DNA of 64,000 nucleotides from Acidimicrobiales bacterium (lineage in GTDB: Bacteria; Actinomycetota; Acidimicrobiia; Acidimicrobiales; MedAcidi-G1): the NCBI GenBank assembly GCA_014237715.1, contig JAAZZG010000001.1, positions 1 through 64,000 on the forward strand, read 5' to 3'. The translations under genes were made by a program, and so were the position numbers. Positions 3 through 64,000 of the stretch are shown piece after piece. The notes under the pieces are model-generated. The model did not search any database, was not told where the DNA came from, and was given only the letters and a program-made list of their open reading frames with translations. Numbering within the stretch: the first letter of the stretch is position 1; each line of letters opens with the position of its first letter.

Positions 3-671
3 GTCGATACGGGCGTTCCAGCATTTGGTCCTGACGGCGCCCAGATCGGCGGCCCCGGCATCATCGAGGTCTTCGCGGACTGGAAACGCCTCGAGGGTCC
101 CGACGAGGCACCCCGGGTGAACGGTCGGATTCGGGGACTCGTCCAGGCCTCGGTCGGGGGGTTCGCCGAGGACGTGGCCGAAGAGGTGGAACGCCACGGC
201 TTTGCCTGCCGTGACGGCTCCCACGGCCGGTGTGCCTGGCTGCAGCATCGGCAGGAGGTGCTGTTGGCTACCGACGAACTCTTCAGCGTCCGCGACGTCG
301 TACGACGCCTCATGCCGGGTGCATCGGCTGTCGACGAGGAGATCCGCACCGAGACGTTCGACCTGGAGACCGGCCGTCCTATCACCGTGGCTGAACTCTT
401 CGACCCGATGACCGACTGGGTCGCAGCGGTGTCCATCGAGGCCATCAGTCGATTGGCCCGGGAACCGTGGACCGACGAGCGCCGGGTCGTTGGTGCATCA
501 TCCGAGTCGGGCAACTTCGAGCGATTCAACCTCACCCACGGGGGGCTGGTGCTGTCCTTCGCTCCGGGCTCCATTGGTGGCCACGGCAGCAACACCGTGT
601 CGATCACCATCCCGTATCGGGCCCTGGACGGCTTCTGGGCTGAGGACGGCCCGGTCTCCCGCATCGAATAG
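3..671 (+). CDS. DUF3298-like (RsiV C-terminal type) protein, 5' truncated
   Basis: The frame is open from the left edge of the window to the stop at 669-671, so the true start lies outside; 222 residues are visible. The C-terminal third carries the pattern of DUF3298 domains, as in the anti-sigma factor RsiV: a stretch on 'fields set by input' (ITVAELFDP), then a region GLVLSFAPGSIGG, and finally the strand SITIPYRAL near the C-terminus. No signal peptide can be judged because the N-terminus is missing. DUF3298 proteins are usually exported or membrane-anchored; that is family knowledge and cannot be confirmed here. A GTG at 117 could start a shorter protein, but the uninterrupted upstream frame makes an upstream start more likely. 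Confidence 0.6.
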   Translation, partial: VDTGVPAFGPDGAQIGGPGIIEVFADWKRLEGPDEAPRVNGRIRGLVQASVGGFAEDVAEEVERHGFACRDGSHGRCAWLQHRQEVLLATDELFSVRDVVRRLMPGASAVDEEIRTETFDLETGRPITVAELFDPMTDWVAAVSIEAISRLAREPWTDERRVVGASSESGNFERFNLTHGGLVLSFAPGSIGGHGSNTVSITIPYRALDGFWAEDGPVSRIE

Positions 672-6628: not shown

Positions 6629-8253
6629 CCGGCGTCGACCTGGCTCAGGAGAGGTACTCCGGGACGCGCCGACCGGTTGGTGGTACCGGCCTCCCGCACA
6701 ACCTGTCCGTTGACCACCACGTGGTGGACACCGACCGACTCCAGCCACGTCTTCTCAATGGTCGCACGGTCGGAAATGGTGGCCGGGTCGAAGACGGTCA
6801 CGTCGGCCGCCGCTCCGGCCGAGAGGCGCCCCCGTTGGGCCATGGCCGGGCTGGAACCCTCCAGCAGTCGGGCCGGGAGGATGGTCATCTTGGCCAGTGC
6901 CTCGGGCAGCGTCAGCACGCCCTGATCGCGCACGTAGTGGCCCAGCACCCGACTGAAACAGCCCGATGCCCGGGGATGGTTGTTGTGGGGCCTTTCGAGG
7001 ATGGCGTCGGATCCCACCATGATCCAGGGGGTGGTCAGCGGCAGTTCGATGTCGTCGTCGGACATGGCGAACGCCGCGGTGAGAAGGTTGTCCTTCCGGG
7101 CTGCTTGCCATCCAGCCTCGTCGAGGCGCTTGGACGTGGCCGCGACCTGGAGGTCGGCCACCGTGATGCCGTACTTCTCCCGGAAGTTGTCGAACCGGGC
7201 GCTATTCGCGTAGGTGGCCCAGAAGGTGTAGGGGTAGGAGCAGGCCGTCAGGGCCAGCCCGTCGGTCCGCGCTGCTTCCATCTGGGCGATCGCCTCGGCC
7301 ATCCGCCCGGTGCCGCCGGTCGAGTTGACGTGCTCGATGTGGACGGCACAGCCCGTTCGCCGGGCCACGGTGACCGCCTCGGCAATGGCCTCCTCCTGGG
7401 TCCCCGGTTCCAGGTTCTCCGAGTACCGGAGGTGCAGGCAGAGGGGCACGCCGTGGGAGGCGGCGAGGTCACCGTGACGAAGCATCTCGTCGAGGGTCAC
7501 GCCGGGGACGTATTCCGGTTGCTCGTGGATGCCCAGTGCGCCCCCTCGTAGGTCAGCGTCGGCCCGTCGGATCAACTCGTCGATATGGCGATCGGTGGCG
7601 TAGTCGATGCCCGCACCGATGGCTGCCCGGTGGCTGTACTGGTCGGTGGCGCCGCCGTAGTTGACCGGTGGCCGGTGGGTAGCCGAGCGCGACAGAAACG
7701 TGTCCATTGGGTCGTTGATCCCGTGCATGCAGAGGTTGGAGGTGACCCCGTCGGCGATCTTGTTCCATTCTCCGTAACCGTTCACAGGGTAGGAAAGGAT
7801 GTCGATGAAGCCAGGAGCGACCACCAGCCCGGTGGCGTTCAGCGTTGAACGGCCGATCAGCGGTGTGGTGGCCACCGTCATCACGGTGTCGCCGTCGATG
7901 CCCACGTGGGCCACAGCGTCGAACCCGGTCTCCGGGTCGATGACCCGCCCGCCGGCAACCACCAGGTCGTAGCGGTGGGTGTCGACCGTGGTGGTGGTCT
8001 CATCGGGCCCACCGGTCGACGTCGTCGATGGTTCCGGGGGCCGGCTGGTGGATGAGCGAGGAACCGCCGGAATGGTGGTCGGGCCGCCGGCGGTGGCCCC
8101 ACCATTCGGTCTGCCGGGAAGCCGCCGACCGAGGGCGAGGAGGGCGGTGCCGAAACCGATGCCGAGGACGACTCGTCGTCTACCCACCGCCTTGGGCCGC
8201 AAGTCGGTATCCGGGTACGAGTCGGGTTGCGGGTCGTCGGCAGCCTCGTCCAC
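6625..8253 (-). CDS. N-acyl-D-amino-acid deacylase-like amidohydrolase, probably exported
   Basis: This 542-residue protein has an N-terminal GRRR-V-V-L-G segment followed by a hydrophobic stretch, which resembles a Tat signal, and then a Pro/Thr-rich linker. From about residue 95 it is an amidohydrolase of the D-aminoacylase/dihydroorotase type: LVVAGGRVIDPETG, LVVAPGFID, AVHIEHVNSTGG, MVGSDAI and a C-terminal RGRLSAGAAADVTVFDP. The metal-binding His-x-His that normally follows GFID is replaced by FIDILSYP, with no histidine. GTG at 8253 is preferred; the longer upstream frame runs into the divergent gene's 5' region. Its stop overlaps the CapA-like start, so the two probably work on the same cell-envelope substrate. 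Confidence 0.75.
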   Translation of the reverse strand: MDEAADDPQPDSYPDTDLRPKAVGRRRVVLGIGFGTALLALGRRLPGRPNGGATAGGPTTIPAVPRSSTSRPPEPSTTSTGGPDETTTTVDTHRYDLVVAGGRVIDPETGFDAVAHVGIDGDTVMTVATTPLIGRSTLNATGLVVAPGFIDILSYPVNGYGEWNKIADGVTSNLCMHGINDPMDTFLSRSATHRPPVNYGGATDQYSHRAAIGAGIDYATDRHIDELIRRADADLRGGALGIHEQPEYVPGVTLDEMLRHGDLAASHGVPLCLHLRYSENLEPGTQEEAIAEAVTVARRTGCAVHIEHVNSTGGTGRMAEAIAQMEAARTDGLALTACSYPYTFWATYANSARFDNFREKYGITVADLQVAATSKRLDEAGWQAARKDNLLTAAFAMSDDDIELPLTTPWIMVGSDAILERPHNNHPRASGCFSRVLGHYVRDQGVLTLPEALAKMTILPARLLEGSSPAMAQRGRLSAGAAADVTVFDPATISDRATIEKTWLESVGVHHVVVNGQVVREAGTTNRSARPGVPLLSQVDAG

Positions 8254-14442: not shown

Positions 14443-15453
14443 TCAATCGAGGTGGAGAACGCCGTGTCTCGGGAGCAGCGACGGAGCGTTGTCGGTGTGC
14501 AGCAGGCCGGCGGTAGCCAGCCCGGGTGCCGGGTCCAGGGCGCCGAGCGCCGACGCCAGGTGGGCCGCCGCACCGATGCCTATCGACCCCTCGAGTAGCG
14601 AGGTCACCACGACGGTTAGCCCGGCCTCGGAGGCGGTCCGGGCCGCAGCGGCGGTCGCCAACGGTCCTCCCATGGCGGATGGCTTCAGCACGACAACGTC
14701 GGCGCTGGCCAGGCTGATGGCCCGGTCGAGATCCTCCGGGGTGGCGATGGACTCATCCACGGCCAACGGGATCGGCGACGCGGCCCGGACGACTGCCAGA
14801 GCGTCGAGACCGGATACCGGTTCCTCCACGAACTCGATCTCTAGGTCGGCGAGGCGTTCCAGATGACGGGGGGCCGCATCGATCGCCCAACCACCGTTGG
14901 CGTCGATCCGTAGACGGGCGTCACCAATGGCATCCCGGACGGCGTTCAAGCGGGCCAGGTCGGCCTCGAACGGACCGGCAGCCACCTTCACCTTCACCGT
15001 TCGGTGGCCCAGGGCGACGGCGGAAGCGGCGGCTGCCGCTGCCTCGTCCGGTGTGGCGCCAACCACCAGTGCCGAAACGGGTACGACGCTGGGACTCCCG
15101 GGAGCCAGCAGGTCGTGGAGGGGCCGCTCGGCGGCTTGAGCGGCGAGATCCAGCAGGGCTCCGTCGATGGCGGCTCGGGCGGTCGGACTCCCCGTGGGTT
15201 CGGCGCCGTCGTCGGCCCAGCGCCGGAGCGCCCGTTCCGCCTCATCGGCTGTCTCGGGGGTGAAGGCGGTCATCGGGGCGGCTTCGCCGCGGCCGAACCG
15301 TCCCTCGCCGTCGACCAGCGTCAGTACCACGACGTCGCGCTGGCTGATGGTGCCGTGGGCGGTCACCATGGGGGAGCGGTAGGCCAGCGTCACCCGGTCG
15401 ACCCTGATCTCCCTGACGTCCGGAGGTTCGAGGTCGACGAAATCGGTGATCAT
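14443..15453 (-). CDS. menC: o-Succinylbenzoate synthase
   Basis: A 336-residue enolase-superfamily enzyme. It dehydrates SHCHC to o-succinylbenzoate in menaquinone synthesis. Seen are the catalytic lysine motif KVKV (about residue 152), the metal ligands in RIDANGGW, EFVEEPV and AVDES, the second lysine in VVLKPSAMGG, and the C-terminal SLLEGSIGIGAAAHLA. The identity as menC rather than another enolase-type dehydratase/racemase is supported strongly by the position: it is the last gene of a men operon and its ATG overlaps the stop of menH by 4 bp. Confidence 0.92.
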   Translation of the reverse strand: MITDFVDLEPPDVREIRVDRVTLAYRSPMVTAHGTISQRDVVVLTLVDGEGRFGRGEAAPMTAFTPETADEAERALRRWADDGAEPTGSPTARAAIDGALLDLAAQAAERPLHDLLAPGSPSVVPVSALVVGATPDEAAAAAASAVALGHRTVKVKVAAGPFEADLARLNAVRDAIGDARLRIDANGGWAIDAAPRHLERLADLEIEFVEEPVSGLDALAVVRAASPIPLAVDESIATPEDLDRAISLASADVVVLKPSAMGGPLATAAAARTASEAGLTVVVTSLLEGSIGIGAAAHLASALGALDPAPGLATAGLLHTDNAPSLLPRHGVLHLD

Positions 15454-16286
15454 CGCCCGTCGACCTCGTCGAGCATCTCCCGTATGGCAGCCACCACGTG
15501 GTCGGGGTGCTCGAGGTGGGCTGCGTGCCCGGCCTCGGGGACCACCTCAATGGCTGACCGCGCCAACCCGGCGGCCATACGCATGGCGATGGCCCGGAAC
15601 TTTGGGTCCTCGTCGCCCGCCAGCAGGAGGACTGGCACGTCGACGCCCGCCAGGTGGTGCCAGTACGACGGCTGGGCGCCCGTGCCGGTGCCTCGGAGGC
15701 TGGCGGCCAGTCCGTCCGGATCGTTGGTCAGTCGCTGGGCCCGGTCGTCGGCCAGCGATTTGGCGCCGAGGCGGTTCTGGCTGGCGAACAGCGGGCTGGC
15801 CATCCACCGGTCCACGAAGGCGGGAAGGCCCTGTTCCAGAAGGTCGTCGGCCAGTTCGTCGTCGGATCGTCGGCGTGCCGCACGTTCTACGGGATCCGAC
15901 AATCCGGGGGACGCCCCGATCAGAGAGAGGGAGATCACCTGTTCAGGGTGTCGGATCGCCAGGCCGAGGGCCACCCGTCCACCCATGGAGTAGCCGACCA
16001 GGTGGGTCGGTCCGAGGTCGTGCTGGTCGATCACCTGAGCCACGGCGTCGACGGTGTGTTCGAACCCGTAGGTCTGGGCGTCGTCGCTGGAGCGGACGGC
16101 AGTGCTACGTCCATGGCCCGGCAGGTCGACAACCGCCACCGACCGGGTGTCGGACAGCGATCGGGCCAGAGGCCACATGGTGATTGTCGAACCGGTAAAA
16201 CCGTGGAGGACCAGGATCGGGCGGCCCGTGGCATCTCCGTCGGAAGGTCCCTCGAATTCGACGTGGAGGCCCAACTCGTCGGTCAC
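15450..16286 (-). CDS. menH: SHCHC synthase-like alpha/beta hydrolase
   Basis: The 278-residue protein has an alpha/beta-hydrolase fold: ILVLHGFTGST, VAVVDLPGHGRS, the nucleophile elbow GYSMGGR (Ser near residue 100) and PEAGHAAHLEHPDHV with the catalytic His. MenH eliminates pyruvate from SEPHCHC to give SHCHC. Sequence alone would only say alpha/beta hydrolase; the menH call rests on its place between menD and menC. It starts with GTG and overlaps the menD stop by 4 bp (GTGA). Confidence 0.85.
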   Translation of the reverse strand: MTDELGLHVEFEGPSDGDATGRPILVLHGFTGSTITMWPLARSLSDTRSVAVVDLPGHGRSTAVRSSDDAQTYGFEHTVDAVAQVIDQHDLGPTHLVGYSMGGRVALGLAIRHPEQVISLSLIGASPGLSDPVERAARRRSDDELADDLLEQGLPAFVDRWMASPLFASQNRLGAKSLADDRAQRLTNDPDGLAASLRGTGTGAQPSYWHHLAGVDVPVLLLAGDEDPKFRAIAMRMAAGLARSAIEVVPEAGHAAHLEHPDHVVAAIREMLDEVDGR

Positions 16287-18058
16287 CGAATCGCCTCCGG
16301 GCCTCGGAGGGCACGGTCGGCCACCCGGGCGGCTTCGCGGTGGAGTTCGACGTTGGTGGTGGCATCGGTCCGAACATGGACGAGGTGGAGGCCCGGTGCA
16401 CCCACCGACCGGATCAGTGCATCCTCCAGCGTCGGTTGATCCGCCGGTTGGTGGAGGGTGGCGCCAGCCAGGCGGGCCGCGTGGCTGAGGTCCAGTCCAT
16501 GGGGCGTGTGGAAGAGGCGCTGGTGGTCGACGTGGTCACGTTCGGCGATGGGGAGGAAGGAGAAGATTCCGCCTCCGTTGTTGTCGACGATGACGACCGT
16601 CAGGTCGACACCGAGGCGTCGGGCTGCAGTGAGTCCACCAAGGTCGTGGAGCACGGTGAGGTCGCCGGCCAACAGCACCGTCGGGGTGCTCGAGCCGGCC
16701 GCCAAGCCGATGGCCGTGGAGACCTGTCCGTCGATGCCGTTGGCGCCCCGGTTGCCGCGGACCGACCACTCCCGCTGGTCGACGGGCAGGAAGGCATCGA
16801 GGTCGCGTAGCGGCATGGAGTTGCCCACCACCAGGGTGACCGCGTCGGGCAGGGCGGCGTCAAGGGCAGCCACCACACCGGGCTCGTCAAACGGAGCATC
16901 GGTCACGAGAGTTGCCACGGCGGACGCGGCGGTCGCCTCGGCATCCAGCCAGGTGCCCAGCCAGGTGCCCGGCTGGATCCCGGTCCGGTCATCATCGGTG
17001 AAATGTCTGAGGAGGTGCCCGGCCAGACGACCCGGCTCGGCGCCCACCCGGTCGGTGATCCGGCGCGCAGCATCGGGGAAGCGCCCGAGGTGGTCGACGG
17101 CGACAATACGGTCGGCGCCCACCCGGTCCAGCCACAGGCGGTAGCCCTTGCTGGTCGGCATAGCCCCCAGTTGGACAACTACGTCGGGGTGGTGGTCGTC
17201 GGCCCACGAGGAGCGCAGGAGGTGATCGCCGGTAGCCAGCACAGGGGCGTCGGCGACGTGGCCGCCGCGGCGGAGACCGGACACCGGGTCAGCGAGGATC
17301 GGCCAGCCTGTCTGGCGGGCCAGCTCGGCCAGGGCGACGCGTCCGACGGGCGAGGGGTCCATGGGGCCGGCCACGATGAGGCCCCGCTCGGGACGGTCAT
17401 CGCCGGCCACCAACTCGTCGAGGCAGCCCGCCTCGATGGGCACCCGGTCGGGAGGCAGAGGAAGAAGCCCGACGGATGGCAGGCCAGTCTGTGAAGGATC
17501 ACCCGAGGGGGGCTCCAGCGGTTCGCGTAGCGGTACGTTGAGGTGTACTGGGCCGGGGGCCGGCCGGGTTGCTCGCACCACGGCCTGATGTGCCACTGAT
17601 GCCGCCTCGCCAGCCGGTTCGCTACCGGCTACCGCGGTGGTCGTCGCCCAACGTACGTGGGTCCCGTAGATCCCGTCCTGGTCGATGGTCTGGGGAGCGC
17701 CGACGCCCTGCAACTCGGCCGGCCGGTCGCTAGTTAGGACCATGAGCGGCACCCCGGAATGGAAGGCTTCGATGACCGCCGGCAGGTAGTTGGCCGCTGC
17801 GGTACCCGAGGTGCACAGGAGGGCTACCGGGCGGCCGGTGGCCCGGGCCAAGCCCAGGGCGAAGAACCCGCCGGAGCGTTCGTCGAGGTGCATCGACAGC
17901 TCGAGCCCGGGGGTGTGGTCGGCAGCCACTGTCATCGGTGTCGACCGTGACCCCGGCGATGCGGCGACGTGGTTCACCCCGCATTCGACAAACTGGGCGA
18001 ACAGCGTCCGGCACCAGGCCTGGACTGCGACCGGGTCAGCGGCCGGAAGGTAGGTCAT
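16283..18058 (-). CDS. menD: SEPHCHC synthase (2-succinyl-5-enolpyruvyl-6-hydroxy-3-cyclohexene-1-carboxylate synthase)
   Basis: A 591-residue thiamine-diphosphate enzyme. It joins isochorismate and 2-oxoglutarate in the first committed menaquinone step. The N-terminal domain shows AASPGSRSTPM, the catalytic Glu in LDERSGGFFALG (about residue 58), LLCTSGTAAANYLPAV and SDRPAELQGVGAPQTIDQ. The C-terminal ThDP-binding region has GNSMPLRDLD, NRGANGIDGQVST, LAGDLTVLHD and VDNNGGGIFSFLP. Length is normal for MenD. ATG start overlaps the menF stop (ATGA). Confidence 0.96.
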   Translation of the reverse strand: MTYLPAADPVAVQAWCRTLFAQFVECGVNHVAASPGSRSTPMTVAADHTPGLELSMHLDERSGGFFALGLARATGRPVALLCTSGTAAANYLPAVIEAFHSGVPLMVLTSDRPAELQGVGAPQTIDQDGIYGTHVRWATTTAVAGSEPAGEAASVAHQAVVRATRPAPGPVHLNVPLREPLEPPSGDPSQTGLPSVGLLPLPPDRVPIEAGCLDELVAGDDRPERGLIVAGPMDPSPVGRVALAELARQTGWPILADPVSGLRRGGHVADAPVLATGDHLLRSSWADDHHPDVVVQLGAMPTSKGYRLWLDRVGADRIVAVDHLGRFPDAARRITDRVGAEPGRLAGHLLRHFTDDDRTGIQPGTWLGTWLDAEATAASAVATLVTDAPFDEPGVVAALDAALPDAVTLVVGNSMPLRDLDAFLPVDQREWSVRGNRGANGIDGQVSTAIGLAAGSSTPTVLLAGDLTVLHDLGGLTAARRLGVDLTVVIVDNNGGGIFSFLPIAERDHVDHQRLFHTPHGLDLSHAARLAGATLHQPADQPTLEDALIRSVGAPGLHLVHVRTDATTNVELHREAARVADRALRGPEAIR

Positions 18059-19434
18059 GGCGTGGCACCCATCGCCCTGGGCTCGGTTCTGCCGGACGGT
18101 GGAGTAGCCAGCACGAGTCCGAGGAGGGTTCGCAACTTGACGTCGGTTTCGGCCAGCTCGCGGTCGGGATCCGAGCCGGCTACCACACCGGCACCCGCGT
18201 ACAACGTGGTCCCCCCATTGTGGACCAGGCCGGTTCGCAGAGCGACCCGGAACTCGCCGTCACCCGATGCATCCATCCAGCCCACCGGGCTGGCGAACCA
18301 TCCCCGCTCCATGCCCTCGTGGACGGCCCGAAGGTGGGCGGCCTGGCCACCGGGATGGCCGGCCACCGCCGGTGTGGGGTGGAGGACGCCCACCAGGTCC
18401 AGCAGTCCTACGCCGTCGGGAAGTTCAGCGTCGATCGGCGTATGGAGGTGCTGGATACCGTGCAGTCGGAGCAGGGTCGGGTTCCGTGGGTGGCGGTCGG
18501 CCACGCCGAGGCCGTCCAACGCCCGGTCGACGGCTTCAACGACTACGTCGTGTTCGGCGCGTTCCTTGGGGCTGGTCAGCAGGCCCTGGCCGAGGGCGGC
18601 GTCGATCGCCGGGTCATCGTCTCGTGGCGCTGATCCGGCGAGCGCAGCGGTGTGGAGGTGTCCGACGTGTACGGCGGCCAAACGTTCTGGCGTGGCCCCG
18701 ATGAAGATCGTGTCGGCCCCAGCCGGTCGCACGGCCAGCGTGGCGCACGCCGGATAGGTGTCACGCAGGGCGGCCAGCAGCGGTGAGGGTTCGGGCCGGT
18801 GGTCGACGTGGATGGATCGACACGGCACGGCCTTGGCGAGGTCACCACGGTCGATGGCGGCCAGCGCCAGACGAACCAGTTGGCGGTAGTGCTCGCGGGC
18901 TTCCGGGCCGGCGTGTTCCGCGGGGTCCACCAGTTCTGCTGGAGTGGGAGTTGGGGCACCGAGCAGAGGGGTGGGCCGGTCGTGGTCGTCGATACGGGTC
19001 ACCCAGGTGCGGTCGGCGTGACGAACCACTTGGACGGCGGGCAGGACCAGTCGGCCGGCTCCAAACGCCATCCAGGGGCTGGGTTCTCTGAGTGGAACGG
19101 ATACTTCAGGAAGGTTCTCGTCAAAGGCGAAGCCACCGGCGATCCTGGGAGGTGGGGCGTCGTCCGGAGCCCGCAGGTGGATGGACTTCCAGAGTCGAGC
19201 GGCGGCCCCGGCGGCATCCAGGAACCGGGAGTCGCCGCCTAGTTCGAGCACGGCTGCCGAACCGAGGCCGACCCACGAGGTGTCGTCGTCGGGGACCTCC
19301 CAGAACCACGCCTCGTCGTCGCTCGGAGTCACGGCAAGCCAGGCCAGCGGGTCGGTGGCCGGTCCGGTGTGGACTTCGACGGTGGTGGCCCGCATCGGCC
19401 CTGCAAAGGGCGTCGGGTCGGCGGTCAACGCCAT
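18055..19434 (-). CDS. menF: Isochorismate synthase
   Basis: The 459-residue protein belongs to the chorismate-binding family; it isomerises chorismate to isochorismate. Recognisable are GGFAFDENL in the N-terminal part, then RLALAAIDRGDLAKAVPCR, IFIGATPERLAA, ALAGSAPRDDD, LLTSPKERAEHDVVVEAV, LHPTPAVAGHPGG and RTGLVHNGGTTLYAGAGVV in order, covering the Mg2+ and substrate site. Placement directly before menD with a 4-bp overlap supports MenF rather than a siderophore-type EntC. Its start overlaps the end of the merR gene by 10 bp. Confidence 0.95.
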   Translation of the reverse strand: MALTADPTPFAGPMRATTVEVHTGPATDPLAWLAVTPSDDEAWFWEVPDDDTSWVGLGSAAVLELGGDSRFLDAAGAAARLWKSIHLRAPDDAPPPRIAGGFAFDENLPEVSVPLREPSPWMAFGAGRLVLPAVQVVRHADRTWVTRIDDHDRPTPLLGAPTPTPAELVDPAEHAGPEAREHYRQLVRLALAAIDRGDLAKAVPCRSIHVDHRPEPSPLLAALRDTYPACATLAVRPAGADTIFIGATPERLAAVHVGHLHTAALAGSAPRDDDPAIDAALGQGLLTSPKERAEHDVVVEAVDRALDGLGVADRHPRNPTLLRLHGIQHLHTPIDAELPDGVGLLDLVGVLHPTPAVAGHPGGQAAHLRAVHEGMERGWFASPVGWMDASGDGEFRVALRTGLVHNGGTTLYAGAGVVAGSDPDRELAETDVKLRTLLGLVLATPPSGRTEPRAMGATP

Positions 19435-20222
19435 CGGACGTCTACCTCCAGGCGGTCAGCATCGGCAGTCAGGAGGGCATCGGCCAACCCTGCCCCGGCG
19501 TCGGCTCCCGCCCGCTCGCGGGCCCGGGTCACCAGCGTCCTGTGGAAGTGCTGGGCCACCAGACGGGTGACGGCTGGCAGCAGCGAGCGGACCACTTCGA
19601 CCAGGTCCTGGTCTCCATCAGTCCGTTCTCCAGTAACGGTTGTTCCGTGGTGGACGTGGCGTTCGAAGAGGTCGACGGCACGCTCCGCCACCTCGTGGAC
19701 GTTGGCGCCGTGGTCTGCGGCCAGGGCGACCAACTCGTCGAGCGGGACGCCGGCAGCGCTGATGGCCAGACCGGCCCGCACCATGGAGACCGCACCCTCG
19801 TCGAATCGGGGCTCGGGGTCTGTGGTGATGGGTGCGAGGAGACCGTTGTCGACCAATAGGGCAACGAGTCCTTCAGGAACCCCGGCCTGCCCGGCCACCT
19901 CGGAGCGCGAGAGGCTGCGATCCAGAGCGTCGTCGGCCAGACGACGGAGCTCGTCGACGGCCCCGCTGGCGGATGACTCGGAACTCAGCGCACCGATCTG
20001 GGTCAAGGTGAATCCGTCCTCGGCTAGGCGACGGATCTCGGCCAGTCGGGTCACGTGGTGGTCGGAATAGACGGCTCGTCGGCCATTGCGGACCGGCGGA
20101 GTCAACAGGCCGAGACGCTGGTAGTACCGCACGGTGTCGATGCCCAGGCCGGAGGTCGCCGCCACCTCGTCGACGGTCAGACCGGTAGGGGGGTTCCCGT
20201 TGTCGGCGTCCACGTTGGCCAC
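19425..20222 (-). CDS. MerR family transcriptional regulator heading the men operon
   Basis: The 265-residue protein starts with a MerR-type winged helix-turn-helix (residues 14-80: LTVDEVAATSGLGIDTVRYYQRLGLLTPP, YSDHHVTRLAEIRRLAEDGFTLTQI). It is followed by a long helical effector/dimerisation region without the Cys pattern of metal sensors. The second part, around 110-200, repeats a helix-turn-helix-like layout (LSRSEVAGQAGVPEGLVALLVDNGLL). GTG start. The gene overlaps menF by 10 bp, so it is the first cistron of the men operon and likely controls it; coupling of a MerR to menaquinone synthesis is an inference from position. A palindromic site lies just upstream. Confidence 0.85.
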   Translation of the reverse strand: MANVDADNGNPPTGLTVDEVAATSGLGIDTVRYYQRLGLLTPPVRNGRRAVYSDHHVTRLAEIRRLAEDGFTLTQIGALSSESSASGAVDELRRLADDALDRSLSRSEVAGQAGVPEGLVALLVDNGLLAPITTDPEPRFDEGAVSMVRAGLAISAAGVPLDELVALAADHGANVHEVAERAVDLFERHVHHGTTVTGERTDGDQDLVEVVRSLLPAVTRLVAQHFHRTLVTRARERAGADAGAGLADALLTADADRLEVDVRWR

Positions 20223-20332: not shown

Positions 20333-21256
20333 ATGGAAGTCCGACCGGAGACGTCAACGCCGATCGACTACATCGCCCTGACCCGCGACCGGTACGACCT
20401 CCTGGGCTATCCCCCGTACCAGTGGGCCGAGTTGACGGACACGCCGCCGTGGACGCCGCTGACCCGACCCCTCGCCGAGTCGACGGTGGCCCTCATCGGA
20501 TCAGGCGGCGCCTATCGCGAGGGGCAGACGGCCTTCCACTGGAAGGACGACACCGGTGTACGGCGTATCCCATCGGCCGATCCGGCCACCGACATCCGGG
20601 TCACCCACTTCGCCTACGACCTCGAGCCGGCCCGGGAGGATCCGAACATCGTGTTCCCCGTGGACCGGCTTCGCGATCTGGTCGACGAGGGCGTGATCGG
20701 CGGCTTGGCTCCCACGGCCCTGGGGTGCATGGGTGGGATCTACTCCGTCCGTCGTGCCACGGAGGAACTGGCCCCGGCCGTCGTCGCTGAGATCACGGCC
20801 ATGGACGTCGACCTGGCCCTGCTGGTGCCTGTCTGACCGGTCTGCCACCAGACCGTGGGTCTGGTAGCGAGGGCATTGGAGGCTGCCGGCGTGCCGACCT
20901 TGTGCCTGACGTCGGCGTACAGCATCACCGCGTCGGTGAACCCGCCGAGGGCCGCTTTCTCGGACCTACCGCTGGGTCACACCGTCGGTCGGCCCCACCA
21001 ACCGGAGTTCCAACGCGACTTGCTGCGTCGGGCGCTGAACGCGGCAGTCAACATGGACGCCCCGGGGACCATTGCCGCCACCGGCGTGACCTGGGACAGC
21101 GACGGCTCCTGGAAGCGGAGGGCCACGCCCACCGGGATGGAGTCCGAGGAGGATGCATCGAGGGACGGCGACCCGGGAGACTCCCGCAACGTCCGCGTCG
21201 ACACCCCGCAGTACCAGTACGAGTCCGACCGGCTGGCTGCCGGATCGGGTTCGTGA
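20333..21256 (+). CDS. Selenoprotein, glycine/sarcosine/betaine/proline reductase B-subunit (GrdB/PrdB) family
   Basis: The reading frame is 307 residues with an in-frame TGA at 20834-20836 (residue 168). The two halves are in the same frame and continue one conserved protein: DYIALTRDRYDLLGYPP, IGSGGAYREGQ, DIRVTHFAYDL, LAPTALGCMGGIYS before the TGA, and PVCHQTVGLVARALEAAGVPTLCL after it. GrdB/PrdB-like proteins carry a selenocysteine here, giving a U-P-V-C (UxxC) redox motif with Cys171. A hairpin 10 nt behind the TGA fits a bacterial SECIS. The classical relatives cleave C-N bonds of glycine, sarcosine, betaine or D-proline with partner subunits; none of the partners is in this window, so the substrate here is unknown. 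ATG start. Confidence 0.9.
20847..20865 (+). promoter_or_regulatory. SECIS-like hairpin behind the in-frame UGA
   Basis: ACCAGACC (20847-20854) pairs perfectly with GGTCTGGT (20858-20865) around a GTG loop. The loop starts 18 nt after the UGA, within the distance that bacterial SelB requires, and it contains the GU step seen in bacterial SECIS apical loops. It lies inside the coding sequence, as bacterial SECIS elements do. Confidence 0.75.
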
Positions 21257-21305: not shown

Positions 21306-22262
21306 ATGCCCGTCGCTTCCGACCTGCAACCACTGTTGGATGCCATCGCCCAACGGCGGGATCCGGATGCCCCCATCGATCTCGAGGAACTCCGGGAGGG
21401 TTACCGGGCCATCTGCACCAGTGGACAGCACCTTGCCGCCGAGGTGTCTGAGGTAACCGAACGGATGATTCCCGGGCCGGATGGCGACCTCCCGATACGC
21501 GTCTACCGGGCGGAGGGGCTGGGCGACCGGGCTCCCGTGGTGCTCTACCTGCATGGTGGTGGCTGGACGATTGGTGACCTAGAGGGCTACGACGAGCAGT
21601 TCCGCGCCGTGGCGTCAACCGCTGGAGCGGTGGTGGTGGCCCTCGAGTACCGGCTTGCCCCCGAGCATCCCTTTCCAGCGGCCGTAGACGACTCCTGGGC
21701 GGCTCTCTGCTGGGTGTCGGAGCACGCGGCCGAACTCGGGATCGATCCTGGGCGGCTGGTGGTGGCCGGTGACAGTGCCGGCGGCAACCTGAGTGCGGTT
21801 CTGTCGCTGCTGGCCCGGGATCGTGGTGGTCCGACGATCGCCCACCAGTTCCTGATCTATCCGGCCACCGATTTCGACTACGTCTCCGGACGCTGGCCGT
21901 CGTTGGAGGAAAACGCCACGGGATACTTCCTGGAGTTGAGGACCATGCGGTGGTTCGCTGAAAACGTTGCCGGAGATCGGAATCTGGCCGCAGAGCCCCT
22001 GGCCGCACCGATACGCGCCGAGAACCATGCGGGCCTTCCGCCGGCCACCCTGATGGTGGGCGGCTTCGATCCGCTGCGGGATGAGGGCTTGGGCTATGCC
22101 GAGGTGCTCCGATCGGCTGGCGTGCCGGTCAATGTGATCTATCACGAGGAGCAGACCCACGGGTACTGGATTGTCGCTCCGCTGGTGCCGTCATCGGATG
22201 CGGCACGCGATGTCGACCTGGCGGCCCTGCAAGCGGCCATCGGGGCGCTGCCTGTCGGCTAG
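21306..22262 (+). CDS. Alpha/beta hydrolase, hormone-sensitive-lipase family
   Basis: The 318-residue protein has the HSL-family oxyanion motif HGGGW (about residue 80), the nucleophile elbow GDSAGGN (Ser about 157), an Asp in MVGGFDPLRDEG and His in EEQTHGYW. These esterases/lipases act on short acyl esters. ATG 21306 is chosen because the family domain begins soon after and longer starts run into the selenoprotein gene. It lies 49 bp downstream of the selenoprotein and is likely in the same transcript. Confidence 0.85.
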   Translation: MPVASDLQPLLDAIAQRRDPDAPIDLEELREGYRAICTSGQHLAAEVSEVTERMIPGPDGDLPIRVYRAEGLGDRAPVVLYLHGGGWTIGDLEGYDEQFRAVASTAGAVVVALEYRLAPEHPFPAAVDDSWAALCWVSEHAAELGIDPGRLVVAGDSAGGNLSAVLSLLARDRGGPTIAHQFLIYPATDFDYVSGRWPSLEENATGYFLELRTMRWFAENVAGDRNLAAEPLAAPIRAENHAGLPPATLMVGGFDPLRDEGLGYAEVLRSAGVPVNVIYHEEQTHGYWIVAPLVPSSDAARDVDLAALQAAIGALPVG

Positions 22263-22310: not shown

Positions 22311-23579
22311 TCAGCTCGGTTCGGCCACCGTTCCAGCAGCCACCAGGGCGTCGACCTCGGCACTGGTGCGACCCATGGCCACCAGCACCTCGCGGGTGTG
22401 CTGGCCGATGGTTGGCGCCGTCGACCGGGCCGCCCACGGTGTTCCATGGAAGTCCACCGGCGTGGCCACCATGGTGGTCGACGACACGTCGTCGGGAACG
22501 TCGATCAGAGCGCCCGAACCGTGGAACGCCGGGTCGGCCAACAGGTCGTCCGGCGAGTTGATGGGCGCCCAGAAGAAGTCGGGTTCGGTGGCGAACACCT
22601 CGGTCCACTCGTCCAGCGTCTGGGTGGCGAAGATCCCGTCCAACATGCTGATCAGCTCAGATGCGTTGGCCGCCCGCTCCCGGGGTCGGGCGAACCGCTC
22701 GTCGTCCAACCACTCCGGGTGGCCGACAGCCCGGGCCAGTGGCGGCCAGTGGCGCTCGCCCTCCAGACCGACGATCCAGAACCGTCGGCCGCAGCCCGCC
22801 GTGTAGTTGTTCATGGCCGGATTGCCCATCGACGTGCGTTCGCCGATCTCCAGGGTGGCGCCCCACATCAGCAGCAGGTTCAGGTCGAAACTGATGGTGT
22901 AGGCGCCCTGGCGCATGAGCGACGTCTCGACGAGTTGGCCCTGACCGGTCCGTTCTCGGTCGAACAGGGCGGCTGACACTGCGGCGGCGGCGGCCATGCC
23001 GGTCGAGTGGTCGCCCATCCCGCCTCGTTGGAAGGGGGGATCGCCGCCCGGTGGTGTTAGCAGGCCGGCCACACCGGACCGGGCCCAGAAGGCGGCGATG
23101 TCGAAGGCCGCCCGGTCAGCATCGGGACCCTCGGAGCCGTAGCCGGTGATCTGGCAGTACACGAGGCGGGGTAGGCGCTCGCCGATCGACGCGTGGTCGA
23201 GGCCCAGGCGTTTGAGGGCGCCGACCCGCAGGTTGGTCACGAACACATCGGCATCGGCCAGCAGTTCCATGGCGATAGCCAGACCGTCGTCGGTTCCGAG
23301 GTCAACAGCGATGCCCTTCTTGGATCGGTTGTCCATCTCGAACACCGGGTTGGTGGGCATGTCGCCGCCGAGCATCCACTGGAACATGCGGCACGGGTCA
23401 CCCGACGGGGGTTCGATCTTGACCACGTCGGCCCCCCAGTCGGCGAGGATCCCGCTGGCGGCGGGGCCGGCGAGCCACACGCCGAGTTCCACGACCTTCA
23501 CGCCCCGCATGGGGCCGGTCGCCACTTCCTCGTTCGGAACCGTGTCCTGACCAGTCTCTGTTTCAGCCATGTCCGCCAC
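22311..23579 (-). CDS. CaiB/BaiF family (type III) CoA transferase
   Basis: The 422-residue protein shows the type III CoA transferase pattern: VKVVELGVWLAGPAASGILADWGADVVKIEPPSGDP at residues 27-62, RSKKGIAVDL, VTNLRVGALKRLGLD, YCQITGYGSEGPDADRAAFDIAAFWARSG with the catalytic Asp, and GQGQLVETSLM. Family members move CoA between carboxylic acids via an aspartyl-CoA intermediate. It is divergent from the phosphatase gene and carries a weaker copy of the TetR-type operator 78-92 bp upstream of its start. Confidence 0.9.
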   Translation of the reverse strand: MADMAETETGQDTVPNEEVATGPMRGVKVVELGVWLAGPAASGILADWGADVVKIEPPSGDPCRMFQWMLGGDMPTNPVFEMDNRSKKGIAVDLGTDDGLAIAMELLADADVFVTNLRVGALKRLGLDHASIGERLPRLVYCQITGYGSEGPDADRAAFDIAAFWARSGVAGLLTPPGGDPPFQRGGMGDHSTGMAAAAAVSAALFDRERTGQGQLVETSLMRQGAYTISFDLNLLLMWGATLEIGERTSMGNPAMNNYTAGCGRRFWIVGLEGERHWPPLARAVGHPEWLDDERFARPRERAANASELISMLDGIFATQTLDEWTEVFATEPDFFWAPINSPDDLLADPAFHGSGALIDVPDDVSSTTMVATPVDFHGTPWAARSTAPTIGQHTREVLVAMGRTSAEVDALVAAGTVAEPS

Positions 23580-33960: not shown

Positions 33961-34052
33961 GTCTCCACATCAAGAGTGGTACGCCTTCGGGTGTGCCCAG
34001 CAACCTGGGATGGACACCCAAGGTGCTGTCCGCTTCGTGCGGAGATGCGGTC
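33961..34052 (+). ncRNA. SAM riboswitch (SAM-I/IV-variant type)
   Basis: The core has all hallmarks of the SAM-I/SAM-IV clan. P1 is CCACATC (33965-33971) with GATGCGG (34044-34050). Then follow ATCAAGAG, a short P2 hairpin with a CTTCGG-type tetraloop, the conserved GCAACC, P3 (ACCTGGG/CCCAAGGT), the conserved AAGGTGCT, and a P4 hairpin TCCGC/GCGGA. The long P2 with kink-turn of SAM-I is missing, which fits the SAM-I/IV variant class. It sits 125 bp upstream of a metY gene, a classic SAM riboswitch target. Confidence 0.85.
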
Positions 34053-34135
34053 CCGACTAGATATTCGGGGCAACAAAGTGTCTGAGCTGTCGATGCCGCG
34101 AGGCTTCGAACGTTCGTCGCCGGCGACCAGGGTGT

Positions 34136-34176: not shown

Positions 34177-35493
34177 ATGAGCGCCGAATGGGGCTTTGAA
34201 ACGAAACAGATCCATGCCGGGCAGGACCCTGATCCGACAACCGGTAGTCGGGCCGTGCCCATCTATCAGACAACCTCATACGTCTTCCGTGACAGCCAAC
34301 ACGCCGCGGATCTCTTCGCGCTAGCCGAGGTTGGCAACATTTACACCCGGATCATGAATCCGACACAGATGGTGCTTGAGGCTCGCCTCCAGTCACTAGA
34401 GGGCGGTACGGATACAGCGATTGGGATCCCAGGAGCCTTGGCGCTTGCTTCGGGTCAGGCGGCGGAGACAATCGCGATCTTGAACCTTGCTGAGTCAGGC
34501 GACCACATTGTCTCCTCGGCTTCGCTCTACGGGGGGACCTACAACCTGTTCCACTACACCCTTCCCAAGTTGGGGATTGAGACGACCTTCATCGACGATC
34601 CTGACGACCTTGATGCGTGGAGGGCGGCAATCCGGCCGAATACCAAAGCCTTTTACGGCGAGACGATTGGGAATCCGAGAAACGACTGCCTCGATGTCAG
34701 AGGGATTTCCGAGTTGGGTCACGAGGCGGGCATTCCCCTCGTGGTCGATAACACCGTTCCCACCCCGTTCCTGTTCAACCCACTAGCCCTAGGGGCGGAC
34801 ATTGTCGTGCACTCTTTGACCAAGTTCATTGGAGGTCACGGCAACTCGGTCGGTGGCGTAATTGTGGACGGTGGGACCTTCGACTATGGAGCCAGCGGCC
34901 GGTTTCCCAACTTCACCGAACCTGATCCGAGTTACCACGGGCTTGCCTACTGGCCGGCTCTCGGGAACGGGGCGTACATCATCAAGGCCCGCGTACAACT
35001 GCTCCGTGACATTGGTGCGGCGGTTTCTCCGCAGAACGCCTTCTACTTCCTCCAAGGACTCGAAACACTGAGTTACCGGATGGAACGGCACTTTGCGAAC
35101 GCCCAGGCGGTTGCCGAGTACCTCGACTCCCACGACCAAGTCGAACGAGTCCAATATGCCGGACTGTCGAGTAGTCCGTGGCATGACCGGCTAACCGAGT
35201 ACGGCAGCGGCCGAGGTTACGGCTCTGTCCCGGCATTCATCATCGAGGGAGGACATGAGGCCGGGGCTCGCTTCGTTGACGCCCTCCAGTTGCACAGCCA
35301 CGTCGCCAATATCGGCGATGTGCGCAGCTTGGCTATCCACCCGACGTCGACTACCCACTCACAGCTCACTAAAGAGGAGCAGTCAGCGACTGGAGTTGAG
35401 CCGGGATTGGTTCGACTCTCAGTTGGGTTGGAGACTCTGGATGACATCATTGCCGACCTGGAGGTGGGGTTTGCCGCGGCGCAAACCCGCTAA
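34177..35493 (+). CDS. metY: O-acetylhomoserine sulfhydrylase
   Basis: The 438-residue protein is a Cys/Met-metabolism PLP enzyme of the O-acetylhomoserine (thiol)-lyase branch, making homocysteine from O-acetylhomoserine and sulfide. It shows [31 protein letters not shown] at the N-terminus, [21 protein letters not shown], the PLP lysine in [16 protein letters not shown] (residue 216) and [13 protein letters not shown] near the C-terminus. GGAGG 7 bases upstream of ATG. The SAM riboswitch upstream supports the methionine role. Its codon use looks less GC-biased than that of neighbours outside 33.4-38.4 kb. A paralogue lies at 47819-49114. Confidence 0.93.
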
Positions 35494-62321: not shown

Positions 62322-62506
62322 GGTTCGCACACCTCCGTGCAGTGACTGTCTCATTTTGAAGCCACTGTAAAGACGGATGGGTCTTTCGGGAGGCTTCACC
62401 CGTTAATTGGGGGAGGCTCCACGCCTAACCCGCCTGAGGACTTTCGGCCGCTGATCCAAGACCGTAAAGTTTTTTGCCAGAGAAGCGAAGTAGGAGAGTT
62501 CCCAGA
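62322..62506. promoter_or_regulatory. Divergent promoter region
   Basis: These 185 bp separate the YbjQ gene from the truncated exported-protein gene and are partly AT-rich (GTAAAGTTTTTTGCC near 62464). The ribosome binding site AGGAG of the right-hand gene is at 62492-62496. No palindrome stood out. Confidence 0.35.
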
Positions 62507-64000
62507 GTGCGTGTACTCATGGCTTTCACGGCGGTCGCCGTACTGGCATCCATCGGATTGGCGTGTGGATCTACAACTCCTGAGCCGGTCGCCGAGCCGG
62601 TCGCTACGACGGCTGCCACGACGTCCAGCACCACGTCCACGACGATGGCACCGACCACGTCGACGACCAGCACCACGTCCACGACGGTGGCTTCGACCAC
62701 GTCGACGTCCAGCACCACGTCCACGACGGTGGCTCCGACCACGTCCACGACGGTGGTTCCGACCACGTCCACGACGGTGGTTCCGACCACGTCGACGTCC
62801 AGCACCCCGGCTACGACGGTGGCTCCGACCGTGGAGGTGGCGACGTTTTCCCGAGATGCGGGCGGCACCACCCTGGAGACGGTCGTCAGCTGCGGCCCGG
62901 ACGGGCTGAGCGCTGAACACCGGATTGACGGCGAACCTGTCGAACCCGAAACGGCCGGACTGACGTTCCCTTGGGCCTTTGAGATCTACCACCGGGTCGT
63001 AGCCGCCGTCGCCGTTGACGGTGTCGACTATCTCTTCGATGGTGGCTGGTGGATCGAGGACCGCGAGAGCGACTCCTGCGCACCGCACGAGCCACCCGTC
63101 TGGGAGGACTTCGCCGACGGCGGACAGATCGTGGTCACCGAGATCCTCTGGGAGAAGGCCGACTTCCGTGACATAGCGTGCCCCGGGTTTCTCCCAGACG
63201 CTGAGGAGGGTTGGGGCGATCCCGATACCTGCATCCTGGACTTCAACCATGTGCGTCGGGCGACAGTCGACGGGCAACTCCTCGAGATCGGGTTCGACTG
63301 TGGACCATTCGGCGTGGGTGAGGTGTGGTGGGTGGTCGATGGGACGATGGTCTCCAACCGCTACTACCACCCGCCGGAGTTCACCGAAGACGAGTATGAG
63401 CAGTTCATTCTCGAGCCGATGCGTGCCCGCTACGGCGACACGGTCTACGACTACGTCGCACAGGTCCAGTGGCTCGACAGCGAGGTCTATGTCTTCGACA
63501 TCGGTCGGGTACGAATCGACCTGAACATCGAAGCAGCCCTCAAGAGCGACAACTGCGCCCTGGTTGACTGGTCACGGCCGGAGGTCGCCTTCGAGGGCGC
63601 CACGCCGGGCCATCTGATCTGGCAGACCGGTCTCGGGGACCTGGAGTGTCCCGGAGACGGCCCGGGCGGTTACTCGTCATGCGGTAAAGACGTTACGTAC
63701 GGGGAGGCGTCCGGAACCGACCTGGGCCTGCGCTTTCGCCTGTCGTCCAAGCCGGCCACCGCAGTGGTCGTCGACATCACCTGGGACCCCACCGAGGTCC
63801 ATATCGGGCCCGCGGCGGGTGGGTGCGCCATGGTCGACCAGTCCGTGACGTCTAAGACCCTTCGAACCACCATCGAACCCGTCGACTGGCGGCGGATGCA
63901 CGAGTACGCCACGGCCGGAGCCGGAGACGGCATCGCCGACGGCGATCAGGTCACCGAGATCCGCGTGACGGTCGTGGACGAACTCTCAGACTCGGCGTAC
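62507..64000 (+). CDS. Thr-rich exported (lipo)protein, 3' truncated by the window
   Basis: The frame is open from GTG 62507 to the last base (498 codons, no stop), with AGGAG 10 bases upstream. The N-terminus has a signal sequence (AFTAVAVLASIGLACGS) that ends in a possible lipidation Cys, although GLAC deviates from the usual lipobox. Residues about 25-105 are an extreme Thr/Ser/Val/Pro linker of repeated TTSTT and TTVVPTTS units. Behind it lies a globular region with several Cys and aromatic residues (FEIYHRVVAAVAVDGVDYLFDGGWWIED, VYVFDIGRVRIDL) that I cannot assign to a family. Probably anchored outside the membrane, with the linker spanning the cell wall. Confidence 0.75.
   Translation, partial: MRVLMAFTAVAVLASIGLACGSTTPEPVAEPVATTAATTSSTTSTTMAPTTSTTSTTSTTVASTTSTSSTTSTTVAPTTSTTVVPTTSTTVVPTTSTSSTPATTVAPTVEVATFSRDAGGTTLETVVSCGPDGLSAEHRIDGEPVEPETAGLTFPWAFEIYHRVVAAVAVDGVDYLFDGGWWIEDRESDSCAPHEPPVWEDFADGGQIVVTEILWEKADFRDIACPGFLPDAEEGWGDPDTCILDFNHVRRATVDGQLLEIGFDCGPFGVGEVWWVVDGTMVSNRYYHPPEFTEDEYEQFILEPMRARYGDTVYDYVAQVQWLDSEVYVFDIGRVRIDLNIEAALKSDNCALVDWSRPEVAFEGATPGHLIWQTGLGDLECPGDGPGGYSSCGKDVTYGEASGTDLGLRFRLSSKPATAVVVDITWDPTEVHIGPAAGGCAMVDQSVTSKTLRTTIEPVDWRRMHEYATAGAGDGIADGDQVTEIRVTVVDELSDSAY
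62600..62835 (+). repeat. In-frame low-complexity tandem repeats coding the Thr-rich linker
   Basis: The commonest unit is 24 bp (ACGACGGTGGTTCCGACCACG plus TCC), coding TTVVPTTS; longer units with TCGACGTCCAGCACC are mixed in. All length differences are multiples of three, so the number of copies can vary without frameshift. Confidence 0.7.

What the first reader, a model, noticed from the sequence alone, without database searches (positions are those of the whole stretch)
20333..21256. Selenoprotein of the GrdB/PrdB family in an actinobacterium, with UGA at codon 168 and a SECIS-like hairpin
Two open frames, in the same phase and separated only by TGA at 20834-20836, together form one conserved reductase B-type protein. 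The residue expected at this position in the family is Sec or Cys, and the result is a UxxC motif (U-P-V-C). An 8-bp perfect hairpin with a GU-containing loop begins 10 nt behind the UGA. The classical glycine/betaine/proline reductases work in anaerobic fermenters with partner subunits; here the gene stands alone next to a menaquinone operon and an esterase, in what looks like a respiring actinobacterium. The substrate and partners would be new.
Basis: partly seen in the sequence, partly recalled or inferred. Interest (0 to 1): 0.92.

Follow-up and report, generated by a model that had tools for sequence, protein, structure and literature searches.

The report
Selenocysteine PrdB-like protein in Acidimicrobiia
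This gene of a probably marine actinobacterium reads one stop codon as the rare amino acid selenocysteine and makes a redox protein of a kind already counted in ocean DNA since 2005; its substrate is unknown, and its repeated place beside vitamin-K-type quinone genes is a useful new clue.

Summary
The frame 20333-21256 (+) runs through TGA 20834-20836 and encodes a 307-aa GrdB/PrdB-superfamily protein with a U168-P-V-C motif. The genome has tRNA-Sec, selA-selB, and a selD itself interrupted by TGA. Of 20 scanned relatives, 12 keep TGA here (11 Acidimicrobi*, one Entotheonella) and 8 have Cys. A hairpin at 20847-20865 with a GU loop is kept, with paired changes, in 46 distinct Sec genes, though coding sequence explains part of it. 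Sec-containing "PrdB" with UxxC was already a leading marine selenoprotein in the Sargasso Sea (42 genes) and GOS (235) surveys, so this is a new member of a known kind. The tests available speak against D-proline reductase: 147 bits against a cut-off of 300, and no PrdA/GrdE-type partner found in the 93%-complete genome. The gene does not stand alone: in its family it was divergent from a MerR-men operon at every locus examined, and in a second family it directly precedes menB (13 of 13 loci); 7 further loci show neither. Best reading: a selenol/thiol reductase of unknown substrate, probably co-regulated with menaquinone synthesis.

The parts
20333..21256 (+). PrdB-like selenoprotein gene, 307 aa, Sec at codon 168, UPVC motif
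20834..20836 (+). in-frame TGA read as selenocysteine (Cys in the 8 scanned homologues outside Acidimicrobi* and Entotheonella)
20847..20865 (+). bacterial SECIS-like hairpin; family-wide stem 20847-20853/20859-20865, in the window one more pair 20854-20858, GU in the apical loop
20223..20332 (.). divergent intergenic region with a conserved block (GAGTnnnnACTCTsAGTGTCGAT-like; the window has AAGT in place of GAGT); promoter-like site for the - strand at 20257-20229
19425..20222 (-). MerR-family regulator, first gene of the predicted menaquinone operon, divergent from the selenoprotein gene
18055..19434 (-). isochorismate synthase (menF-type)
16283..18058 (-). menD
15450..16286 (-). menH
14443..15453 (-). 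menC, o-succinylbenzoate synthase
21306..22262 (+). alpha/beta hydrolase (Abhydrolase_3, close to the hormone-sensitive-lipase type), next gene downstream in most but not all relatives
22311..23579 (-). class III CoA-transferase (CoA_transf_3); the same broad family lies near Cys homologues in other phyla

Best explanation
The gene encodes a true selenoprotein: SelB and tRNA-Sec decode the UGA with the help of the hairpin just behind it (inferred from homology and conservation, not shown by experiment). The protein is a one-subunit, PrdB-like selenol/thiol reductase. The Sec168 selenolate would attack an electrophilic or oxidised small substrate, Cys171 would resolve the selenenylsulfide, and a cellular thiol donor would reset it (inferred from the UxxC motif and its conservation). 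It fits the Sec-containing 'PrdB' group known from ocean surveys and is most likely not a D-proline reductase: it scores far below that equivalog, and no pyruvoyl partner was found in the genome. It is probably expressed in step with the menaquinone operon through the divergent MerR regulator (inferred from the conserved divergon and intergenic block), so its substrate may belong to quinone metabolism or to the redox state that controls it.
For: In-frame TGA and superfamily match. tRNA-Sec at 67.5 bits, named SeC(tca) by ARAGORN; selA 397 bits and selB 268 bits adjacent; selD 352 bits with its own TGA, 16 kb beyond the window on the same contig. 12 of 20 scanned relatives have TGA and 8 have Cys. 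Sec-or-Cys and PVCHQ invariant in the alignment of 18. Hairpin: 93.5% of cells paired in 46 distinct Sec genes against 10-43% when slid. selA in 118 of 132 class genomes with a PrdB-like hit against 141 of 263 without. Tree: the window's clade has 42 rows, 41 Sec and one nested Cys (L032), the expected Sec/Cys exchange. TGA is also an ordinary stop here: 37 of 50 predicted window genes end in it. MerR and menF divergent in 11 of 11 scan relatives and in 10 of 10 family-f1 loci, own included; menB directly downstream in 13 of 13 family-f50 loci. No PF09338 or TIGR04480 hit in G000, while PF09338 rang in 2 of 20 relatives.
Against: Part of the hairpin follows from the coding sequence: 8 homologues without Sec (7 Cys, 1 Ala) still pair 79% of the same cells and have mean z -1.1 against -1.9 for Sec genes; only 27 of 46 Sec genes beat 95% of synonymous recodings. 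14 of the 132 genomes with a hit have no selA hit, two of them listed at 90% completeness or more (G234, G292). Neither men linkage appears in 7 of the 30 best loci (families f19, f21, f29), and none was seen near L031-L039 with the window's men genes as queries. G000 is 92.6% complete, so a missing partner is not proven, and TIGR04480 had no ringing control. GrdA was not searched. No solved structure resembles the model (best Foldseek E 2.6e-3, TM 0.29), so the chemistry cannot be read from a fold.
Confidence: 0.7

Rival explanations
1. It is a genuine D-proline (or glycine/betaine-type) reductase B subunit whose pyruvoyl partner lies in the missing 7% of the genome.
For: TIGR04483 is the best NCBIfam match, 147 bits over 215 of 238 positions; PF07355 above cut-off; two relatives, G399 and the Entotheonella genome, do carry PF09338 genes.
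Against: Score is half the equivalog cut-off. No PF09338 in G000 nor in 10 of the 11 Acidimicrobi* genomes reached (their completeness is not told there). In G399 the PF09338 gene sits beside its own GrdB-like gene with a UGTG motif, on another contig stretch than this locus. PrdC and other prd genes were not searched.
Confidence: 0.07
2. TGA is a real stop: two separate genes or a decayed pseudogene.
For: Two half-frames exist; a GTG at 20855 could start the second.
Against: The 11 Acidimicrobi* loci match at 74-98% identity through the TGA (best-segment values), and homologues with Cys in its place are single frames (L032-L038; L039 has other stops in its frame). selA occurs in 118 of 132 genomes with a hit.
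Confidence: 0.02
3. UGA is reassigned or suppressed (for example as Trp, Gly or Cys) without a selenium pathway.
For: The frame is open through a TGA.
Against: The gene itself ends in TGA, as do 37 of 50 predicted window genes; the full SelA/B/D/tRNA-Sec set is present; the aligned residue is Cys elsewhere.
Confidence: 0.01
4. The protein belongs to acyl-CoA or xenobiotic degradation, its partner being a class III CoA-transferase or the esterase, and the menaquinone neighbourhood is incidental.
For: A CoA-transferase-III stretch starts 347-392 nt beyond the match on the same strand in 6 of 6 of L033-L038 (Pfam-checked in L034), and a CoA_transf_3 gene ends just at the start of the gene in L032, which also has a nitroreductase gene downstream. 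A CoA-transferase, ACAD and thiolase lie downstream in the window.
Against: In the window's family the CoA-transferase is on the other strand and was not found in L028 and L030; none was found in five family-f50 stretches of 14-15 kb; the esterase is missing in L048-L050. It is also a very large family, so adjacency can be chance.
Confidence: 0.25

Closest known systems
Marine 'Proline reductase PrdB' selenoproteins of the Sargasso Sea and GOS surveys (PMC1088965, PMC2398784; passages read)
   Same: UxxC motif; pfam07355 relationship (GOS table); more Sec than Cys sequences (235 against 110 in GOS)
   Different: Those are survey sequences; 'actinobacteri' does not occur in either main text. 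Here a host group, gene context and Sec machinery are given. Direct sequence identity with the survey sequences was not tested.
D-proline reductase PrdB (TIGR04483)
   Same: Aligns to positions 13-227 of the 238-position model, UxxC
   Different: 147 bits against a cut-off of 300; about 60 extra C-terminal residues; no PrdA found in G000
GrdB / GrdF / GrdH (glycine, sarcosine, betaine reductase component B)
   Same: Pfam GRDB above cut-off; match to the C-terminal part including the Sec region
   Different: 38-46 bits against NCBIfam cut-offs of 65-800; the match starts only at model position 265 or later; no PF09338 (GrdE-type) gene found in G000; GrdA not searched
Cys-containing PrdB-like proteins of Desulfobacteraceae and Betaproteobacteria (L032-L036, L038)
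   Same: 37-50% identical in the alignment, CPVCHQ at the same place
   Different: Cys instead of Sec; class III CoA-transferase nearby

Membership tests
Bacterial UGA-encoded selenoprotein | In-frame UGA aligned with Cys in homologues | tested here: met
   12 TGA, 8 Cys among 20 relatives; a Cys member nested in the Sec clade
Bacterial UGA-encoded selenoprotein | SelA, SelB, SelD and tRNA-Sec in the same genome | tested here: met
Bacterial UGA-encoded selenoprotein | SECIS hairpin just behind the UGA, conserved with paired changes | tested here: met
   partly coding-driven
Bacterial UGA-encoded selenoprotein | Full-length Sec protein detected | not testable with these tools
   needs mass spectrometry or 75Se labelling
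GrdB/PrdB superfamily (PF07355) | Match above Pfam's gathering score | tested here: met
   34.2 bits against 22
D-proline reductase PrdB (TIGR04483) | Score above the equivalog cut-off | tested here: not met
   146.9 against 300
D-proline reductase PrdB (TIGR04483) | PrdA (pyruvoyl subunit) in the genome | tested here: not met
   none in G000 (92.6% complete); one search shows that the PF09338 search finds such genes in 2 of 20 other genomes
D-proline reductase PrdB (TIGR04483) | Reduces D-proline | not testable with these tools
   enzyme assay
Marine Sec-PrdB group of the Sargasso/GOS surveys | UxxC Sec motif and pfam07355 relationship | tested here: met
   papers
Marine Sec-PrdB group of the Sargasso/GOS surveys | Sequence close to the survey sequences | not tested
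   those sequences were not compared

The most novel reading that the evidence does not exclude
A selenocysteine enzyme is an unrecognised helper of menaquinone synthesis in Acidimicrobiia: transcribed from a MerR-controlled divergon with the men genes in one family and placed directly before menB in another, it would reduce a menaquinone-pathway intermediate or its quinone oxidation product, or keep a pathway thiol reduced.
Probability: 0.18. Interest if true: 0.7.

Novelty: new member of a known kind. Interest (0 to 1): 0.38.

Why it matters
It gives a host group and a genomic context to one of the most abundant, functionally unassigned marine selenoprotein groups, argues that 'proline reductase' is probably a wrong name for it here, and offers a concrete lead (menaquinone genes, MerR control) for finding what such proteins do in oxygen-respiring bacteria.

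Tried and rejected
Multi-Sec paralogues: of the rows with 2 or 3 TGA, the six read (L073-L078) proved to run past a natural stop, so the idea was dropped. Fold comparison: a good model (pLDDT 86.6) had no meaningful match among solved structures (best E 2.6e-3); a sequence search of solved chains gave nothing below E 0.17. Rfam on 20700-21000 gave three sub-threshold matches, none a SECIS family. The esterase as obligatory partner was rejected because three family-f1 loci lack it. The CoA-transferase as obligatory partner was rejected because L028, L030 and five f50 stretches lack it. Paper searches for Acidimicrobiia selenoproteins found nothing relevant (listings only).

Rows dropped: the first tree lost 3 of 67 loci (L032, L039, L068) through my motif filter and showed an all-Sec clade of 41; rebuilt with L032 (65 rows; L039 not entered because of stops in its frame, L068 missed because its motif is UPIC) the clade has 41 Sec and one Cys. 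I report. In one search the set without Sec holds 8 rows found by a motif filter (7 Cys, 1 Ala: L082); L032, L034 and L081 are not in it, and L068 is not in the Sec set. In one search, 14 of 21 loci were aligned; 7 were missed by the start-motif filter. Alignment A1 holds 18 of 21 sequences (L023, L037, L039 left out).

Full report
Observation. The + strand frame from ATG 20333 runs to TGA 21254-21256 and is broken only by TGA 20834-20836, codon 168; read through, it gives 307 residues with the motif U-P-V-C. Pfam GRDB matches residues 46-164 at 34.2 bits (cut-off 22). The best NCBIfam model is D-proline reductase PrdB, TIGR04483, 146.9 bits over positions 13-227 of 238, well under its cut-off of 300.

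Organism and selenium machinery. The window lies in an unnamed 2.33-Mb genome (G000, 92.6% complete). That it belongs to Acidimicrobiia is inferred: the closest scanned locus, 98% identical, is an Acidimicrobiaceae MAG with the same gene order. That it is marine is inferred from relatives such as ETNP1_MAG_18 and ALOHA_A2.5_66 (titles). tRNA-Sec scores 67.5 bits (gathering score 47) and ARAGORN names it SeC(tca); the second hit above cut-off is a tRNA-Ser. selA (397 bits) and selB (268 bits) are adjacent on contig C22. selD (352 bits) lies at C11:80011-80934, 16 kb beyond the window on the same contig, with one TGA inside. A second PrdB-like gene with TGA lies at C33:255314-255886. TGA is also the commonest stop: 37 of 50 predicted window genes.

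Relatives. The genome-contig scan gave 20 loci. The 11 Acidimicrobi* loci (L020-L030) and one Entotheonella (L031) have TGA at this place; the other 8 (L032-L039) have Cys, L039 in a frame with other stops. In the 18-sequence alignment position 168 (Sec counted as Cys), P169, V170, C171, H172 and Q173 are invariant. Of 395 class genomes 132 have a hit at E <= 1e-10; the 30 best rows all carry one TGA; the list of matches was cut. selA is found in 259 of the same 395 at E <= 1e-50: 118 of 132 with a PrdB-like hit, 141 of 263 without. Among genomes tallied as at least 90% complete and at most 5% contaminated it is 92 of 94 against 81 of 174, where the two lacking selA (G234, G292) were picked by rounded values. 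Two genomes with only TGA-free listed rows, G158 and G194, have no selA hit; both are incomplete (80% and 64%); in G194 a paralogue has Ala at the Sec position. In a tree of 65 rows (55 Sec, 9 Cys, 1 Ala) the window's clade holds 42 rows, 41 Sec and the Cys protein L032, sister of the Entotheonella Sec protein (100/97); at least 4 changes of label are needed.

Hairpin. Counting from the T of TGA, positions 14-20 pair with 32-26 (window 20847-20853 with 20865-20859), and in the window 21-25 adds an eighth pair. Over 46 distinct Sec genes, paralogous subfamilies included, 93.5% of the seven-pair cells are standard pairs, against 10-43% when the partner is slid by 1-3; pairs 15-31, 17-29, 18-28 and 19-27 show changes on both sides; the loop holds GT at 22-23 in 43 of 46. 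Against synonymous recodings with the window's codon usage, Sec genes have mean z -1.9 (27 of 46 at p<0.05), the 8 genes without Sec -1.1 (2 of 8); the window gene has z -2.0 (p 0.03 by energy, 0.09 by pairs) and the second paralogue -5.8. So the hairpin exceeds coding constraint across the family, but in the CHQT..GLV context coding alone already gives part of it.

Neighbourhood. In 11 of 11 scan relatives the divergent neighbours are the MerR regulator and menF, with menD and menH where the stretch reaches them. The same MerR-menF pair lies beside 10 of 10 family-f1 loci of the class search, own included (the two sets may share genomes, and all are close kin, so this may be one inherited arrangement). 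MerR overlaps menF by 10 bases and menF, D, H and C overlap in turn, so MerR heads a predicted operon. The intergenic region has a conserved block in the 14 of 21 loci aligned, and a promoter-like site points towards MerR. The esterase follows in 10 of 11 scan relatives by alignment (L025's stretch ends there) and in 7 of 10 f1 loci. In family f50 the next gene on the same strand is menB in 13 of 13 loci (85-100% identical to L099's); L099's copy is menB by NCBIfam (573 bits) and starts on the last base of the selenoprotein gene's frame. The other 7 of 30 loci (f19, f21, f29) show neither within about 1.5 kb; longer stretches of six of them gave only an ACAD match (L090) and a weak 30% crotonase-like match to menB (L095). 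In L033-L038 a class III CoA-transferase stretch starts 347-392 nt beyond the match, same strand; L032 has such a gene ending at its start and a nitroreductase downstream.

Probably not a D-proline reductase. Neither PrdA (TIGR04480) nor the wider PF09338 family was found in G000. No control genome rang, so I searched the 20 relatives' genomes: PF09338 rang in 2 (G399 and the Entotheonella genome), which shows that the search can find it, and not in the other 18. In G399 the PF09338 gene stands beside its own GrdB-like gene with a UGTG motif. GrdA, PrdC and other prd genes were not searched. COX1-family genes are present, in line with a respiring organism.

Known or new. The Sargasso Sea survey (PMC1088965; passages read) lists proline reductase PrdB as third most abundant family, 42 genes, motif UXXC, and suggests that the rarity of formate dehydrogenase there may reflect the aerobic nature of the surface microbes. 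The GOS survey (PMC2398784; passages read) lists 235 Sec and 110 Cys sequences under pfam07355. A genome survey (PMC1794560; passages read) lists proline reductase selenoproteins in, for example, Anaeromyxobacter and Geobacter. Reviews PMC13188914 and PMC9312934 (passages read) list the family; 'acidimicrobi' does not occur in their main texts. PMC5029168 and PMC9402790 (passages read) also count it. Searches for Acidimicrobiia selenoproteins found no relevant paper in the held library (listings only). So the kind is known; host group, context and the men linkage are what this analysis adds.

Mechanism. Shown: frame, conservation, machinery, hairpin pairing, gene order. Inferred: UGA decoding as Sec, a selenol/thiol redox cycle between Sec168 and Cys171, MerR control. 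Open: substrate and electron donor. The AlphaFold model is confident (pLDDT 86.6, pTM 0.89) but resembles no solved structure convincingly.

Noticed in passing
G000:C33:255314-255886 (-), locus L040 about 6820-7970: Second PrdB-like selenoprotein gene of the genome (UPLC motif, longer C-terminal part), next to a gene that looks like a 2-oxoglutarate/Fe(II) oxygenase (recalled resemblance, not searched); its hairpin is the stronger one against synonymous recodings (z -5.8).
   Followed up: partly
L102 99-2805 (genome G399, the Acidimicrobiales MAG of L024): A PF09338 (GrdE-type) gene beside a GrdB-like gene with an in-frame TGA (motif UGTG): a separate reductase-like system in an actinobacterial MAG.
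   Followed up: partly
L084 (G277:C49), L082 (G194:C71), L068 (G272:C1): Motif variants: UPLD (Sec kept, Cys replaced by Asp), APMC (Ala in place of Sec, in a 64% complete genome without a selA hit), UPIC.
   Followed up: partly
G000:C11:80011-80934: selD of the same genome has its own in-frame TGA, so it is probably a selenoprotein too.
   Followed up: no
window 33962-34087 (+): SAM-I/IV riboswitch (46.4 bits) just upstream of a gene at 34177 that looks like an O-acetylhomoserine sulfhydrylase (recalled resemblance).
   Followed up: no
window 62425-62871 (-): Open frame made of a VVDVVGATVV-like repeat, low complexity.
   Followed up: no
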